DNA of 5,215 nucleotides from a bacterium (GTDB lineage Bacteria; UBA9089; CG2-30-40-21; SBAY01). The stretch covers positions 1 to 5,215 of the forward strand of contig JBFLYA010000261.1 of the NCBI GenBank assembly GCA_040757115.1, read 5' to 3'. Made by a program: the position numbers and the translations under genes. This document shows, in pieces, positions 186 through 4,977 of this stretch. Position 1 is the first letter of the stretch; each line of letters begins with the position of its first letter. The notes below the pieces were generated by a model. It was not told where the DNA came from. It saw only the letters and a program-made list of their open reading frames with translations, and ran no database searches.

Positions 186-244
186 ACCCCCGCCAGCGGG
201 GGACAACGGCCAATCAATCACTTGAATGGCGACAGAGCACTAGT
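186..244 (+). repeat. GC-hairpin dispersed element, copy A
   Basis: The element begins with a 16-base palindrome (187-202, CCCCCGC / GCGGGGG), continues through ACAACGGCCAATCAATC, and ends in GCGACAGAGCACTAG. An inverted copy lies at 2647-2705: aligning 59 positions by hand gives 57 identities, with mismatches opposite 2651 and 2691. A shorter forward copy is at 2754-2798. The high identity over 59 bp at 2.4 kb distance, with no coding potential, indicates a mobile or recombining repeat of REP/MITE type. The end GCGACAGAGCAC followed by TA would suit a TA-targeting element, which is inference. Confidence 0.75.
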
Positions 245-370: not shown

Positions 371-632
371 CTATATTTTATAAATCTTGCTCCGATGTTC
401 AATAGCATAAACAGTGATTATTTGAGAAGAATGTTCAATTGAATATATTATTCGCCAATCACCAACCCTCAGTTTATACTTACCTTTAAATTTCCCTGTT
501 AGTGGTTCACTGATAATATGTCCTATATTTTGACAAAACCATTCTATCTTTATCAACAATCCGTTTTGCAATAGTTTTATCAATGCAAGATAAATCTTCT
601 TCGGCTTGAGGTGTAAATTCAACTTTGTACAT
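371..632 (-). pseudogene. RelE/ParE-family mRNA interferase toxin, frameshifted
   Basis: The ATG at 632 starts MYKVEFTPQAEEDLSCID and continues to K28, then runs out of frame to a TGA at 507-509 (41 codons). The frame one base further on continues as IEWFCQNIGHIISEPL and carries the diagnostic RelE stretch GKYKLRVGDWRIIYSI and a C-terminal AIEHRSKIYK before the TAG at 371-373. Deleting one A from the AAA codon (plus-strand TTT, 549-551) joins the halves into an 86-residue protein of normal RelE-family length. Family members are ribosome-dependent or free mRNA endoribonucleases that block translation and are neutralised by the cognate antitoxin. The ATG shares one base with the antitoxin stop (TGATG), a typical translational-coupling arrangement. 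A TTG at 622 opens the second frame directly but gives a non-family N-terminus, so I do not believe it is the real start. The single extra base may be an inactivating mutation, a sequencing error, or less likely a +1 frameshift site. Confidence 0.85.
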
Positions 633-946: not shown

Positions 947-1005
947 GACTAACGACAGAGTTGAGCGGCGTGCGTTAGCACATCCACTCCAACGACTTGT
1001 TGAAC
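947..1005 (-). other. attC-like integron recombination site (left site)
   Basis: Read on the minus strand, this 59-bp segment has outer core GTTCAAC (1005-999, fits RYYYAAC), a 5-base spacer, inner core GTTGGAGT (993-986), a central hairpin ending in the loop TAAC, inner core GCTCAAC (966-960), a 6-base spacer, and outer core GTTAGTC (953-947; GTT conserved, one base off GTTRRRY). The inner cores pair except that the left one has one extra base, the strand-determining bulge expected of attC sites. The orientation agrees with minus-strand genes on both sides. Integron integrases recombine such sites as folded single strands. No integrase gene lies in the window. An unrelated stem-loop is the alternative, but the combination of core spacing, extra base and outer cores makes attC more likely. 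Confidence 0.6.
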
Positions 1006-1008
1006 AAA

Positions 1009-1030
1009 GCCACTTTGTGGCAGTTTTTTT
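1009..1030 (+). terminator. Possible intrinsic terminator, no gene in front
   Basis: The plus strand has stem GCCAC / GTGGC (1009-1013, 1017-1021) with loop TTT, followed by AG and seven T residues. The stem is only 5 bp and no plus-strand gene precedes it. It could be a remnant or chance. A competing pairing ACAAAG / CTTTGT covers part of the same bases. Confidence 0.3.
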
Positions 1031-1053
1031 GACAGCTTTGTAGAGTTATTTTA

Positions 1054-1083
1054 AGTTTATCATATTAGGATATTTGATGTCAA
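1054..1083 (-). promoter_or_regulatory. Probable sigma70 promoter reading toward the antitoxin
   Basis: On the minus strand TTGACA (1083-1078) is a perfect -35 box. With an 18-bp spacer it is followed by TAAACT (1059-1054), preceded by TGA, which gives an extended -10 (TGnTAAACT). Transcription would begin near 1047, cross the attC-like site and reach the antitoxin at 829. No gene lies between, so this is the best visible promoter for the toxin-antitoxin pair. The -10 matches consensus at four of six positions. Confidence 0.45.
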
Positions 1084-1146
1084 GAAGAAAAAGATACATT
1101 TTCAGGAAAATTGTAACTATTCAGCCACGGATTAGCACGGATAAAT

Positions 1147-1244
1147 AGCAGAAGGCAGAGAGCAGAGGACAGAGAGCAGAAGGCAGAGAGCAGAAGGCAG
1201 AGAGCAGAGGACAGAGAGCAGAAGGCAGAGGACAGAAGATAGAG
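1147..1244 (+). repeat. 14-bp tandem repeat, seven units
   Basis: Seven contiguous 14-mers fill 1147-1244: AGCAGAAGGCAGAG alternates with the variant AGCAGAGGACAGAG, and the last unit degenerates to GACAGAAGATAGAG, with a partial unit after it. The strand is almost free of T and purine-rich. A period of 14 is not a multiple of three, and no open frame of useful length crosses it, so it is not a coding repeat. It lies wholly inside the MITE-like element. Copy number should be prone to slippage. Confidence 0.9.
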
Positions 1245-1256
1245 GTCAGAGGTGGG

Positions 1257-1288
1257 TTGTCCCCCGCTGGCGGGGGTTGGGGGGTGGA
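1257..1288 (-). repeat. GC-hairpin element fragment, copy D
   Basis: TTGT, a perfect 16-base palindrome (1261-1276, CCCCCGC / GCGGGGG) and TTGGGGGGTGGA match 2685-2716 at 30 of 32 positions. It lacks the GCGACAGAGCACTAG end found in copies A, B and C, so it is a fragment or a distinct subfamily. It is nested inside the MITE-like element. Confidence 0.65.
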
Positions 1289-1547
1289 AATTTCCTCCAG
1301 TGGCAGAGAATCAAGAAGGATAGAAAATAAAAGTCAGAAAGAGAAAAACCCTTCAGCCTTCAACCTGATTACGGACACGGAAAACGGATACGATTCACGA
1401 ATTTTCAGTGTTTCATCCGTGTCCATCTGTGGCTGAATAATTACTCTGGATTAAAGCGGACTATAGAAGTCTCAAAAATAGATAACTAAACCTACCAAAT
1501 ACAAAATAGCCTTTTATTCAAATTCCAAATAATACTCCATTGCGTTA

Positions 1548-1604
1548 GTTCAACCCAGAATTGTGTGTCGGCGTTACTCCACACAAATTTTTAATTCGTT
1601 AGGC
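1548..1604 (-). other. attC-like integron recombination site (right site)
   Basis: On the minus strand this 57-bp segment starts with GCCTAAC (1604-1598), a perfect RYYYAAC outer core, and ends with GTTGAAC (1554-1548), a perfect GTTRRRY outer core. Between them AATTTGTGTG (1589-1580) pairs with CACACAATT (1567-1559), the left arm carrying one extra T, around a 12-base loop. The spacers are 8 and 4 bases, less regular than in canonical sites. It lies 143 bp beyond the stop codon of the PIN toxin, where the attC of that gene's cassette should be, in the correct orientation. I could not find the matching cassette start (TTAGGC) upstream of the antitoxin at 2503, so the far end of that cassette is unproven. 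Confidence 0.5.
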
Positions 1605-1746: not shown

Positions 1747-2214
1747 TCATTTTCTTCTACTCTTCGTAGCCTTCAGTGGATTTATAACCTCCAGGAATTC
1801 AAATTGCTTAAAGTGAGCCTCATTTGTGGTGTAAATGCCTTTTATGTTATTGTCCATCATTGTGGCTACCAAAACCAGATCAAAAACGCTTTGTTTTGAA
1901 ACAGAATATTTCTTGAGCAGGTTTATAACGGTCTTTAGGGTATTGCTCAATGGGAATATCTTCTTTAAGTTAACCGCTTTTTGGCAGGATTCAATAATTT
2001 CTCTTGCCTTGTCTGATTCTAATGGTGAACCAACTCTTCTGGAATCAGTAATGACCGCATAAAATTCATAGAGGACCTGATGGGATACACAGGCATTTAT
2101 CTTTCCTGAAAGGACCTTTTTATCTATTATCTCCTTGGCCTTTTTATGGTAATGGCTATCTAAATCATAGGCATAAACAAGAATATTAGAATCTATCAGA
2201 TAGGTAGTCGCCAT
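1747..2214 (-). CDS. VapC-like PIN-domain ribonuclease toxin
   Basis: This 155-residue protein is a single PIN domain, the usual length for VapC toxins, which are metal-dependent endoribonucleases that cut tRNA, rRNA or mRNA when freed from their antitoxin. The first motif is YLIDSNILVYAYD with D8. E50 lies in LYEFYAVI, D112 in VFDLVLVATMMD, and the last motif GIYTTNEAHFKQF offers N131/E132 where many members have an aspartate. I chose the ATG at 2214 because AGGAAGG (2227-2221) stands six bases before it. An in-frame ATG at 2244 would add ten residues but has no good ribosome site. The chosen start overlaps the antitoxin gene by 29 bp, suggesting translational coupling. A basic tail (KATKSRRK) ends the protein. 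Its specific RNA target cannot be told from the sequence. Confidence 0.85.
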   Translation of the reverse strand: MATTYLIDSNILVYAYDLDSHYHKKAKEIIDKKVLSGKINACVSHQVLYEFYAVITDSRRVGSPLESDKAREIIESCQKAVNLKKIFPLSNTLKTVINLLKKYSVSKQSVFDLVLVATMMDNNIKGIYTTNEAHFKQFEFLEVINPLKATKSRRK

Positions 2215-2503
2215 AGATTGCCTTCCTATTGATGAGTTCTTCATTTATTTTACCAAGATGTCCAGTGGGAAATTGTTTCAGGACAAATGGTTTTCCCATT
2301 GCCTCATCCACCTCAATCTTTTCCTTATATCCCTGCCATGCCTTCATCTTAAGCCATTGCAGAATAACATCCCTGGGAAAGAGTATATTCTTGCCTACTT
2401 TTACTGATGGTATCTTACCTTTACTTACACTTCGATAAATGGTTAGAGGTTCCACTTCCAATATTTTTGCCATTTCCTCGACATTATAGACTATCTTTTC
2501 CAT
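2186..2503 (-). CDS. MerR/excisionase-type HTH antitoxin
   Basis: This 105-residue protein has a winged helix-turn-helix of the HTH_17 (MerR-like, excisionase) kind at about residues 6-51: YNVEEMAKILEVEPLTIYR is the HTH, KGKIPSVKVGKNILFPRD the wing, and VILQWL the closing helix. The C-terminal part (about 70-105, with FVLKQFPTGHLGK and EELINRKAIYGDYL) is the probable toxin-binding tail. Lying directly before and overlapping a PIN toxin, it is best read as the operon's antitoxin and repressor, binding DNA by the HTH and blocking the ribonuclease with the tail. The start is firm: a perfect AAGGAGG lies ten bases before the ATG. A phage-type excisionase is the alternative, but no integrase is nearby and the PIN partner argues against it. 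Confidence 0.8.
   Translation of the reverse strand: MEKIVYNVEEMAKILEVEPLTIYRSVSKGKIPSVKVGKNILFPRDVILQWLKMKAWQGYKEKIEVDEAMGKPFVLKQFPTGHLGKINEELINRKAIYGDYLSDRF
2221..2227 (-). promoter_or_regulatory. Ribosome binding site that sets the PIN toxin start
   Basis: AGGAAGG on the minus strand is six bases from the ATG at 2214 and lies inside the antitoxin coding sequence. The alternative ATG at 2244 has no comparable site. The toxin is therefore probably translated by ribosomes arriving from the antitoxin gene. Confidence 0.6.
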
Positions 2504-2540
2504 CTTTTCAAAACCTCCTTTTTATTTTCATCTGGCTACT

Positions 2541-2546
2541 ATTATA
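2541..2546 (-). promoter_or_regulatory. Possible -10 box of the HTH antitoxin operon
   Basis: TATAAT on the minus strand (2546-2541) sits about 38 bases before the antitoxin ATG and ahead of its Shine-Dalgarno. No good -35 hexamer is found at 16-18 bp. The overlapping TATATA has TGT before it, so an extended -10 promoter is possible. Any operator for the HTH protein would be expected around here, but I see no convincing palindrome. Confidence 0.4.
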
Positions 2547-2634
2547 TAACATTGAATACAATAAATCCCCTGCTGTCCACGCGAGGTAGATAAGTGTCTT
2601 CATCCCCCTTGCCCCCGTCAAAAGATTCAACAAC

Positions 2635-2653
2635 CAATAGTATCAGACTATTG
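2635..2653. other. Small stem-loop at the edge of repeat copy B
   Basis: CAATAGT (2635-2641) and ACTATTG (2647-2653) form a perfect 7-bp stem with loop ATCAG. The right arm lies within copy B, and one of its bases (2651) is where B differs from copy A, so the stem may postdate insertion. No T-tract follows. Confidence 0.35.
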
Positions 2654-2705
2654 CTCTGTCGCCATTCAAGTGATTGATTGGCCGTTGTCCTCCGCTGGCG
2701 GGGGT
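2647..2705 (-). repeat. GC-hairpin dispersed element, copy B
   Basis: This is an inverted copy of 186-244, 57 of 59 positions identical. It begins ACTATTGCTCTGTCGCC, contains the segment CAAGTGATTGATTGGCCG, and ends in the imperfect GC palindrome CCTCCGCTGGCGGGGG (2689-2704). It is followed by TAGGGGGGTGGA, which also follows copy D. Nearby CATCCCCCTTGCCCCCGTC (2601-2619) looks like a decayed half-unit. Confidence 0.75.
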
Positions 2706-2753
2706 AGGGGGGTGGATTCTTCTATTTCAGATTTCATATTCCATCCCCTTAAT

Positions 2754-2798
2754 CCCCCGCCAGCGGGGGACATCAATTGAGTAGCGACAGAGCACTAG
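2754..2798 (+). repeat. GC-hairpin dispersed element, copy C (short form)
   Basis: A perfect 16-base palindrome (2754-2769, CCCCCGC / GCGGGGG) is followed by ACATCAATTGAGTA and the conserved end GCGACAGAGCACTAG (2784-2798). Relative to copy A it lacks about a dozen internal bases. It faces copy B: GCTCTGTCGC (2653-2662) and GCGACAGAGC (2784-2793) are exact complements, so B and C together form a 152-bp unit with inverted ends. Confidence 0.7.
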
Positions 2799-2819
2799 AT
2801 TAAGACACCACCCGGATTT

Positions 2820-2867
2820 CGGGATTCGGGGATTTTTTCATTCCCGAATCCCGAACCCCGAATCCCG
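2820..2867. repeat. CGGGATTCGGG inverted and direct repeats after pnp
   Basis: CGGGATTCGGG (2820-2830) is complementary to both CCCGAATCCCG (2843-2853) and its direct repeat (2857-2867). The first pairing gives an 11-bp stem with a 12-base loop, and the second a 12-bp stem using 2820-2831 and 2856-2867. In the pnp transcript this structure starts 31 bases after the stop codon. It has no following U-tract on the minus strand, so it is not a standard terminator. It could still protect the mRNA 3' end or stall polymerase. It may equally be another dispersed repeat. Confidence 0.65.
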
Positions 2868-2898
2868 CGCCCCAAACCTACACTCTTGATGCATAGAC

Positions 2899-4977
2899 CT
2901 ATCTTCGTTCGTGAAGCAGTGCCTTTCGGCTTAAACTGATTCTATCATGCTCATCAATCCCAATCACCTTAACCATTATTTCGTCTCCTTCATTAACTAC
3001 ATCCTCAACTTTTTTGACATGATAATCGGCTAATTGAGATATATGAAGCAATCCTTCTTTGCCGGGTAGTATTTCTACAAATGCACCGAAGGTGGTAACT
3101 CTCATCACCTTGCCGCGATAATTTTTGCCTACTTCAGCTTCTTCAATTAAATACTCAATCATCCCTACTGCTTGTGAGGTGGATTCTTTATCCGGTCCAG
3201 AGATATTTACCGACCCATCATCTTTAATATTAATTTTTGCTCCAGTAGTCTCTGTGATATTTTTGATTACCTTTCCGCCAGGGCCAATAACATCTTTAAT
3301 CTTTCTCACCGGGATAGTCATCATAACAATATTAGGGGCATAGTCAGAAACCTCTTTTTTAGGTCGAGAAATAGCCTTTTCCATTTCGGATAAGATGAAT
3401 AATCTTCCTTGTTTAGCCTGTTCTAATGTTGCTTTTATTATTTCATTAGTTATCCCTGGAATCTTTATATCCAATTGAATACCCGTAATGCCATTTTTCG
3501 TTCCAGCAACCTTAAAATCCATATCACCATAAGCATCTTCTAATCCGGTAATATCCGTCATTAAGGCGAAGTTGTTATTTTCTTTAACCAAGCCAATACT
3601 GATTCCTGCAACCGGGTCAGTAATTGGGACTCCCGCGTCCATTAAAGACAATGAACCACCACATACCGAAGCCATAGAAGTAGAACCATTTGATTCTAAA
3701 ATATCTGATACAACCCGAATGGTATAAGGGAATTTTTCTTTAGGTGGAACGACCGGGAAAAGTGAGCGTTCGGCTAAAGCACCATGTCCTACCTCGCGTC
3801 TGCCAGGACCTCGCATTGATTTAATCTCCCCAACGCTAAACGGCGGGAAATTGTAATGCAACATAAACTGTTTGAATTTCTTCCCCTCAATGTTATCTAA
3901 CATTTGTTCATCATCTGGCGTTCCTAATGTCGTTATGACTAAACCCTGTGTTTGTCCTCTGGTAAATAATGCAGAACCATGTGTTCTTGGTAATATCCCT
4001 ACCTGACATTCTATGGGTCTGATTGAAGTAAGGTTGCGACCATCAACCCTTTTGCTATCTTTTAATATAGAGGTTCGAATAATCTCTCCACTAATAATGT
4101 CTATTACTTTACGAATTTGTGGTTCCTGTTCAGAAGAAATTGATTCAAAATGTGAAATTGTTTGGGATATAGCCTCCTTAATTTTTTTATTCCTTAAAGT
4201 TTTATCTGGAATAAACAGAGCCTCTTTAAGTAAATTAGTTGCAAATTCTCGAACCTGGCGGTCAAGTTCCTTATCAATCATAAATATAGGAACTTCCACC
4301 TTTTCTTTTCCTGCTTTTTGTCTCAAATTCTCTTGTAAATCAATAATTTGACAAATAATCGGTTGAGCAAACTCAATTGCATCTAAAATCACCCTTTCAT
4401 CTAACTGATTGGCTGATGCCTCAAGCATCATAATCGTATCTTTGGTTCCTGCAACAATAATATCCAGGTCAGATTCATCTTTTTCTTGATAGGTAGGATT
4501 GACGATGAACTCCTGATTAATCCTTCCTATTCTCACGGCTCCAATGGGTGTGGTAAAAGGAATATCAGAGATATAAAGTGATGCAGATGCGCCGATGATA
4601 CCAAAAATATCTGGTGGGGTATCATCTGCAGATAAAACGGTAGGAACTATCTGGACTTCATTTAAAAATCCTTCAGGAAATAGGGGACGAAGTGGACGGT
4701 CAATAAGTCTGCTACTTAAGATTTCACGCTCGGATGGTTTTCCTTCTCGTCTGAAAAATCCTCCAGGTATTCTACCCGCCGCATAAAATCTTTCTTGATA
4801 CTCAACGGTTAATGGGAAAAAGTCCGTTTCTTTATCTACCTCTGGACTTACAACTGAGGTAACTAAAACAGAAGTGTCTCCACATTTTACCCAGACACCA
4901 CCGTTGGCTTGTTTAGCTACCTTCCCTGTTTCTAATGTCAGGTTTTTCTTACCTATTTTGCATTCAACTGTAAACAT
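2899..4977 (-). CDS. pnp: Polyribonucleotide nucleotidyltransferase (PNPase)
   Basis: PNPase degrades RNA from the 3' end by phosphorolysis, releasing nucleoside diphosphates, and acts in cytoplasmic mRNA turnover as a trimer. The 692 residues match the family length and all domains are present. The first RNase PH domain (about 10-145) includes FFRREGKPSERE and SSRLIDRPLRPLF. An alpha-helical linker (about 150-240) follows. The second RNase PH domain (about 310-520) includes GSALFTRGQTQ and GSTSMASVCGGS. Catalytic residues corresponding to E. coli D486, D492 and K494 are seen as D481, D487 and K489 in EDAYGDMDFKVAGT. A KH domain (about 555-600) has the GPGG loop at 565-568, and an S1 domain (617-687) contains GAFVEILPGKEGLLHIS. 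AAGGAGG precedes the ATG. The gene has its own promoter and no rpsO directly upstream, unlike many bacteria. No damage is seen. Confidence 0.98.
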   Translation of the reverse strand: MFTVECKIGKKNLTLETGKVAKQANGGVWVKCGDTSVLVTSVVSPEVDKETDFFPLTVEYQERFYAAGRIPGGFFRREGKPSEREILSSRLIDRPLRPLFPEGFLNEVQIVPTVLSADDTPPDIFGIIGASASLYISDIPFTTPIGAVRIGRINQEFIVNPTYQEKDESDLDIIVAGTKDTIMMLEASANQLDERVILDAIEFAQPIICQIIDLQENLRQKAGKEKVEVPIFMIDKELDRQVREFATNLLKEALFIPDKTLRNKKIKEAISQTISHFESISSEQEPQIRKVIDIISGEIIRTSILKDSKRVDGRNLTSIRPIECQVGILPRTHGSALFTRGQTQGLVITTLGTPDDEQMLDNIEGKKFKQFMLHYNFPPFSVGEIKSMRGPGRREVGHGALAERSLFPVVPPKEKFPYTIRVVSDILESNGSTSMASVCGGSLSLMDAGVPITDPVAGISIGLVKENNNFALMTDITGLEDAYGDMDFKVAGTKNGITGIQLDIKIPGITNEIIKATLEQAKQGRLFILSEMEKAISRPKKEVSDYAPNIVMMTIPVRKIKDVIGPGGKVIKNITETTGAKINIKDDGSVNISGPDKESTSQAVGMIEYLIEEAEVGKNYRGKVMRVTTFGAFVEILPGKEGLLHISQLADYHVKKVEDVVNEGDEIMVKVIGIDEHDRISLSRKALLHERR

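What the first reader, a model, noticed from the sequence alone, without database searches (positions are those of the whole stretch)
947..1604. Two attC-like sites: a possible integrase-less integron cassette cluster beside pnp
Two segments of 57 and 59 bp, about 540 bp apart and in the same orientation, both show outer cores fitting or nearly fitting RYYYAAC/GTTRRRY, paired inner arms with one extra base on the left arm, and a central loop containing TAAC. Both lie where attC sites belong relative to the minus-strand genes. The gene content (toxin-antitoxin modules) is also typical of sedentary chromosomal cassette arrays. No integrase is in the window, so it would be a cluster of attC sites lacking the integrase.
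Basis: partly seen in the sequence, partly recalled or inferred. Interest (0 to 1): 0.75.

Follow-up and report, generated by a model that had tools for sequence, protein, structure and literature searches.

The report
IS91-family remnant inside an attC site
One of the two proposed integron recombination sites is real. The other is the hairpin end of a small, gene-less relative of IS91 transposons that has jumped into the first site, and related elements hit the same spot in integrons of other bacteria, including a multidrug-resistance plasmid of E. coli.

Summary
Site 1 (947-1005, minus) is a genuine integron attC. A covariance model built only from class 1/2 plasmid attCs finds it at E=3e-6. 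The genome carries an integron integrase above cut-off, many integrase fragments, and about 60 further attCs. Site 2 (1548-1604) is not an attC: it fails the models, and homology between copies breaks at the R'' boxes, not at R' as for cassettes. It is the hairpin end of an element (999-1597) lying inside the R'' box of the site-1 attC, inverted to the host cassette, with a second repeat nested in it. Longer relatives encode an IS91-family transposase plus an IntI/Xer-like tyrosine recombinase. Related intact elements occupy the same position and orientation in attC_aadA1 of an E. coli class 1 integron and in Photobacterium/Salinivibrio attC-like sites. The end hairpin mimics an attC; the other end supplies GTTCAAC, rebuilding R''. 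So 'attC cluster without integrase' is half right: one attC, in an integron-rich genome, hit by an attC-targeting IS91-type element. attC targeting is known for IS1111-attC elements and group IIC introns; for IS91 elements I found only one passing hint.

The parts
371..622 (-). ParE/RelE-type toxin ORF, downstream of the attC
   Evidence: PF05016 30 bits, TIGR02385 35 bits
632..829 (-). small ORF in antitoxin position, just upstream of the toxin ORF
   Evidence: ORF list, no family match; role inferred from position
947..1005 (-). attC site 1: genuine integron attC; the R'' box GTTCAAC (999-1005) is supplied by the inserted element, the rest is host attC, R' box GTTAGTC at 947-953
   Evidence: covariance models 29.8 bits E=3e-6 and 39.8 bits E=8e-9; PWM
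999..1597 (+). non-autonomous IS91-type element, 5' (ter) end at 999, 3' (ori) end at 1597, including the nested repeat; orientation given as that of the transposase in full-length relatives
   Evidence: copies and boundaries; full relatives with IS91 transposase; uninterrupted copy at C208:2052-2320
1009..1030 (+). ter-end hairpin GCCACtttGTGGC followed by T7: terminator-like for transcription entering the element; same kind of hairpin in E. coli, Photobacterium and Salinivibrio elements
   Evidence: sequence
1054..1083 (-). outward promoter-like TTGACA-18-TAAACT pointing out of the element toward the attC and the ParE pair
   Evidence: kept in 10 element copies from 6 genomes; activity inferred
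1107..1445 (.). nested MITE-like repeat with GTAAYTATTCAGCCAC terminal inverted repeats, inserted in the element
   Evidence: dozens of copies in the genome; absent from the C208 element copy
   Evidence: fails attC models; conserved in 11 phylum copies and in proteobacterial elements
1598..1604 (-). host R'' box GCCTAAC, separated from the rest of its attC (947-998) by the element
   Evidence: joined flanks restore GCCTAACAAGTCGTTGG..CGTTAGTC; same split at C208 and C56
1747..2244 (-). PIN-domain (VapC-like) toxin ORF, probable gene of the cassette that owns the interrupted attC
   Evidence: PF01850 43 bits; TIGR00028 64 bits, below its cut-off
2186..2503 (-). HTH_17 ORF in antitoxin position
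   Evidence: PF12728 42.5 bits

Best explanation
Window 999-1597 is a non-autonomous (MITE-like) member of an IS91-family group whose full-length members encode an IntI/Xer-like tyrosine recombinase and an IS91 HUH transposase. It inserted in the R'' box of the attC at the end of a HTH/PIN cassette, in the orientation opposite to that cassette. The insertion parted the host R'' box (1598-1604) from the rest of the attC (947-998). The element's ends look like pieces of an attC. Its ter end finishes in GTTCAAC, which replaces the lost R'' box, so site 1 still looks like a complete attC. Most likely mechanism: a single-stranded or circular element intermediate is joined at the RYYYAA/C step of the R'' box of an attC. 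Either the HUH transposase or the tyrosine recombinase does the joining. An outward promoter near the ter end may then drive the next cassette, here the ParE pair. Shown: the positions, orientation, end conservation, enzyme families in relatives, and repeated attC targeting. Inferred: which enzyme chooses the target, activity of the rebuilt attC, promoter activity, and the one-ended mobilisation described under evidence.
For: Homology between copies stops at R'' boxes on both sides; in 11 of 12 phylum ter ends GTTCAAC abuts attC-like spacer/arm sequence that differs between loci, the twelfth reads GTTCAAA. At 10 of 19 ter ends the flank scores as attC at a level reached by 3.5% of random AAC sites. 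Seven of the distinct ter-end flanks are covariance-model hits at E below 0.01. The split R'' equals the complement of its own cassette's 5' R' box at C208 (GGCTAAC/GTTAGCC) and C56 (AGATAAC/GTTATCT), and 6 of 7 bases match at G002:C119. A longer relative (G001:C184) encodes an IS91 transposase (NF033538, 258 bits against cut-off 125) and a tyrosine recombinase. An intact element of this type lies exactly between GTCTAAC and AATTCGTTCAAG of attC_aadA1 in E. coli plasmid RCS41_p; the empty site is in R100. The same geometry occurs in Photobacterium and Salinivibrio. End hairpins differ in sequence but keep pairing. Window and C197 share ori end, element, attC and ParE pair (320-1608) but not the DNA beyond the ori end, as one-ended IS91 transposition would give (one-ended transposition described in PMC7923331).
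Against: No IS91 transposase is found in this genome, so mobility here is past or helper-dependent. The longer relative in G001 is frameshifted and has lost its ter end. P. ganghwense, Herpetosiphon and Mesorhizobium relatives are not in recognisable attCs, so attC targeting is not universal in the group. The tetranucleotide next to the ori end is mostly GTTA, not the GTTC/CTTG I recall for IS91 itself. Several ter-end flanks (C28, C208 second copy, two in G005) score poorly because their R' box is decayed. The P. toruni flank does not score as attC either.
Confidence: 0.85

Rival explanations
1. One reading: two ordinary attCs bounding a gene-less integron cassette in a cluster without integrase.
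For: Both sites have R-type boxes; 1548-1554 GTTGAAC and 999-1005 GTTCAAC are complementary, as cassette ends are.
Against: Site 2 fails two attC models. The body keeps the same site 2 but sits next to many different attCs, with breaks at R'' rather than R'. Longer relatives carry transposase genes.
Confidence: 0.05
2. The unit is an integron cassette that the integron integrase inserted inverted, by using the wrong (top) strand of host attCs, so that the joint lies at R''.
For: The joint at R'' and the inversion fit what attCs with inverted extrahelical bases do in experiments (PMC2727003); the circular form would carry an attC-like site with paired boxes.
Against: All copies are inverted, none follow an R' box. 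Longer relatives encode their own tyrosine recombinase and IS91 transposase. The same ends occur in Photobacterium and E. coli elements with intact transposase genes.
Confidence: 0.08
3. The element's own tyrosine recombinase, not the HUH transposase, inserts it into attCs by recombining its attC-mimic with the attC R'' box.
For: The recombinase is IntI/XerA-like (TIGR02249 181 bits, below cut-off); the ends in a circle form box-hairpin-box like an attC.
Against: No biochemical data; ori/ter anatomy and apparent one-ended spread fit HUH rolling-circle transposition. This is a variant of the best explanation rather than a full alternative.
Confidence: 0.35
4. A derivative of an IS1111-attC element or of a group IIC-attC intron, the two known attC-targeting kinds.
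For: Both are known to invade attCs, the introns in the opposite orientation to the cassette (PMC11187229, PMC9229058).
Against: Four IS110/IS1111 transposases in the genome share no ends with the element. No group II intron or other Rfam family matches the window, and I see no GUGYG start (sequence). The linked transposase is IS91.
Confidence: 0.01

Closest known systems
IS91-family elements with an additional tyrosine recombinase gene (e.g. the E. coli RCS41_p and Photobacterium copies; possibly ISShvi3 named in PMC9229058)
   Same: IS91 HUH transposase with upstream tyrosine recombinase in full-length relatives; ori hairpin and ter hairpin end nearly identical (CTGCCRCAAAGYGGCTTMGTTCAAC)
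   Different: The window copy is gene-less, about 265 bp without the nested repeat; the flanking tetranucleotide is mostly GTTA
IS1111-attC insertion sequences (ISKpn4, ISPst6)
   Same: Insert at a fixed position in attC sites
   Different: DEDD transposase guided by seekRNA; different ends
Group IIC-attC introns (S.ma.I2)
   Same: Insert in attC opposite to the cassette gene, split gene from attC, bring an outward promoter (PMC8876359)
   Different: Retroelement with ribozyme; none here
Integron attC sites / CALIN
   Same: Site 1 is an attC; genome has integrase and arrays
   Different: Only one attC in the window; site 2 is an element end

Membership tests
integron attC (site 1) | R''/R' boxes and L''/L' arms with unpaired base in L'', scoring in an attC covariance model | tested here: met
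integron attC (site 1) | recombined by an integron integrase | not testable with these tools
   an integrase above cut-off is present in the genome on another contig
integron attC (site 2) | scores in an attC covariance model | tested here: not met
   no hit with R1; 8.9 bits, E=0.6 with R2 on the opposite strand
integron attC (site 2) | cassette break points at the R' box (G/TT) | tested here: not met
   breaks at R'' boxes on both sides
CALIN (cluster of attC sites lacking integrase) | at least two attCs close together without integrase | tested here: not met
   one attC in the 5.2-kb contig
IS91 family | IS91 HUH (Y2) transposase in full-length members with the same ends | tested here: met
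   G001:C184 and G006:C96; E. coli RCS41_p and Photobacterium share both end types
IS91 family | transposase in the copy itself | tested here: not met
   no ORF; no Y2_Tnp in the genome; hence filed only as a non-autonomous derivative
IS91 family | insertion without target duplication next to a fixed tetranucleotide (GTTC/CTTG for IS91, from memory) | tested here: inconclusive
   no duplication beyond the shared GTT core; flank is mostly GTTA
IS1111-attC group | ends shared with a DEDD transposase element | tested here: not met
group IIC-attC intron | group II ribozyme and GUGYG 5' end | tested here: not met
   no Rfam match; element starts GTTGAAC (sequence)

The most novel reading that the evidence does not exclude
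IS91-family elements with a tyrosine recombinase include a third kind of attC-seeking mobile element. They carry an attC mimic, insert at the R'' box of integron attCs, rebuild a complete attC on one side and form a second attC-like site on the other. The element, and what lies next to it, could thereby behave as a gene cassette. This occurs from an uncultured phylum to clinical class 1 integrons.
Probability: 0.5. Interest if true: 0.75.

Novelty: new variant of a known kind. Interest (0 to 1): 0.6.

Why it matters
If right, a widespread IS91 subgroup whose extra recombinase has no role that I know of gains a target and a likely role for that gene. Integrons gain another parasite, able to split cassettes, add promoters and carry neighbouring cassettes along, also in resistance integrons. 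It warns that attC-like hairpins at the ends of such elements can be mistaken for attCs. It also puts integrons and their parasites in a small, uncultured bacterial phylum, where 9 of 19 genomes have a strong (E <= 1e-40) integron-integrase match.

Tried and rejected
A simple box-and-arm scan was too permissive on its own: it ranked a false site by pnp above site 1, so covariance models and weight matrices were built instead. The gene-less cassette and the inverted cassette were each held for a time and dropped when longer relatives turned out to carry IS91 transposase genes. IS1111-attC ends were tested against four IS110-like elements and rejected. A megablast of the E. coli element in the plasmid collection found only itself and a Shewanella end fragment, and no match in E. 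coli genomes. A plasmid search with the window itself found nothing. R''/R' complementarity between neighbouring cassettes is only slightly above that within one attC here, so it is weak evidence by itself.

Full report
What was checked. The window is a whole contig (C261, 5215 bp) of a 4.3-Mb genome in 462 contigs. On the minus strand it holds pnp, a HTH_17/PIN pair and a ParE-type pair.

Site 1 is an attC. A covariance model built from eight attCs of class 1 and 2 plasmid integrons, none from this organism, hits 947-1005 minus with 29.8 bits, E=3e-6. A model that adds attCs of this genome, but not of the window, gives 39.8 bits, E=8e-9. A weight matrix gives 44.5 against at most 22.2 in 100 shuffles.

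The genome is integron-rich. Contig C39 has an integron integrase of 368.6 bits (cut-off 265), and C30 has a partial one over the cut-off with a stop. Fragments lie on several further contigs, and attC arrays follow several of the integrases in the usual divergent layout. The model finds 35 mostly short attCs on over 20 contigs, and the scan adds about 28 of around 130 nt. Nine of 19 genomes of the phylum have an integron integrase match at E <= 1e-40, six of them over the cut-off.

Site 2 is not an attC. It does not score. What lies between the sites is repeated. Copies on C208, C197, C231, C56, C124, C28 and C209 share either the site-2 side or the site-1 side. An uninterrupted copy on C208 is about 269 bp. 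In the window, a second repeat (1107-1445), with dozens of copies in the genome, is nested in it.

Break points. On the site-1 side the shared sequence ends in GTTCAAC (GTTCAAA in one copy), followed by the spacer and arm of attC-like sequences that differ between loci, over 12 junctions from the phylum. On the site-2 side it starts right after a RYYTAAY-type box in most of 11 regex-matched junctions. At C208 and C56 that box is the exact complement of the 5' end of its own cassette (GGCTAAC with GTTAGCC; AGATAAC with GTTATCT), and at G002:C119 six of seven bases match. Joining the flanks in the window gives GCCTAACAAGTCGTTGGAG..CGTTAGTC, a canonical attC. So the unit lies inside R'' boxes. 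Cassettes moved by an integron integrase would break at R' instead (PMC2727003).

Identity. Longer relatives in the phylum contain genes on the strand opposite to the host cassette. G001:C184 holds a tyrosine recombinase (PF00589, PF13495; TIGR02249 181 bits, below cut-off) and an IS91 transposase (Zn_Tnp_IS91, Y2_Tnp; NF033538 258 bits) broken by a frameshift. G006:C96 holds remnants of both. This genome and its genus mate have no Y2_Tnp match, so the window copy is a gene-less derivative.

The same elsewhere. A search with the recombinase finds intact pairs in named plasmids. In E. coli RCS41_p the pair lies between aadA1 and qacEdelta1. Its ends are exactly at GTCTAAC and AATTCGTTCAAG of attC_aadA1, in the orientation seen in the window; the empty site is in R100. 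In two Photobacterium damselae plasmids, P. toruni and Salinivibrio, the element starts GTTGAACGAAGCC next to attC-like arms and ends next to GTTATGC/GTTATGT/GTTAAGT; the P. toruni and one P. damselae flank score weakly as attC. In P. ganghwense, Herpetosiphon and Mesorhizobium no attC is evident. Over 19 ter ends, 10 reach an attC score that 3.5% of random AAC positions reach.

Anatomy and mechanism. The ori end is a hairpin with different stem sequences but kept pairing: GGATAGG/CCTTATCC, GGATATGTGTCG/CGACACCTATCC, AGAATTGTGTGTCG/CGACACACAATTCT. It is followed by GTTGRAC in all proteobacterial copies and in this genome, GTTGAAT in the other family. The ter end carries another hairpin and finishes in GTTCAAC, which restores an R'' box. 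A TTGACA-17/18-TAMACT promoter pointing out of the ter end is kept in ten copies from six genomes. Window and C197 share everything from ori end through attC to the ParE pair but differ beyond the ori end. That is the pattern expected if transposition ran past ter and carried neighbours along (inferred; one-ended transposition described in PMC7923331). Which enzyme picks the attC is not shown.

Context. pnp is followed by an M16 peptidase in G006, G007 (identical to isolate Yes70-31) and G001, but by repeats and cassette genes here. The genus mate's contig breaks at the same repeat. The join beside pnp therefore needs long reads.

Literature. attC targeting is described for IS1111-type elements (PMC11187229) and group IIC introns (PMC8876359). 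[quoted passage not shown] Most subscription papers are not held, so prior description cannot be excluded.

Noticed in passing
G000 contigs C30, C63, C114, C116, C118, C154, C324: Many fragments and frameshifted copies of integron integrase besides the one on C39; several still head attC arrays, as if the genome had held several integrons.
   Followed up: partly
L009:1474-2877 (C39): The integrase sits in a 468-aa open frame with about 145 residues before the usual N-terminal domain; relatives G002, G003 and G006 also have frames of 419-514 aa.
   Followed up: no
window 1107-1445: MITE-like repeat with GTAAYTATTCAGCCAC inverted ends and a variable GCAGAAGGCAGAG core; dozens of copies in the genome.
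   Followed up: partly
window 186-244, 2647-2800 and 1-248: Another dispersed repeat family; 1-248 is 98% identical to a stretch of the integrase contig C39, and the genus mate's pnp contig ends at the copy near 2740.
   Followed up: partly
L017, L018, L020, L024: Many attCs of about 130 nt share a nearly constant internal segment (CAAAGTTTTGTGGT..), and others are only 49 nt long.
   Followed up: no
window 2504-2900: pnp lacks the M16 peptidase that follows it in G006, G007 and G001; insertion or assembly joint at a repeat.
   Followed up: partly
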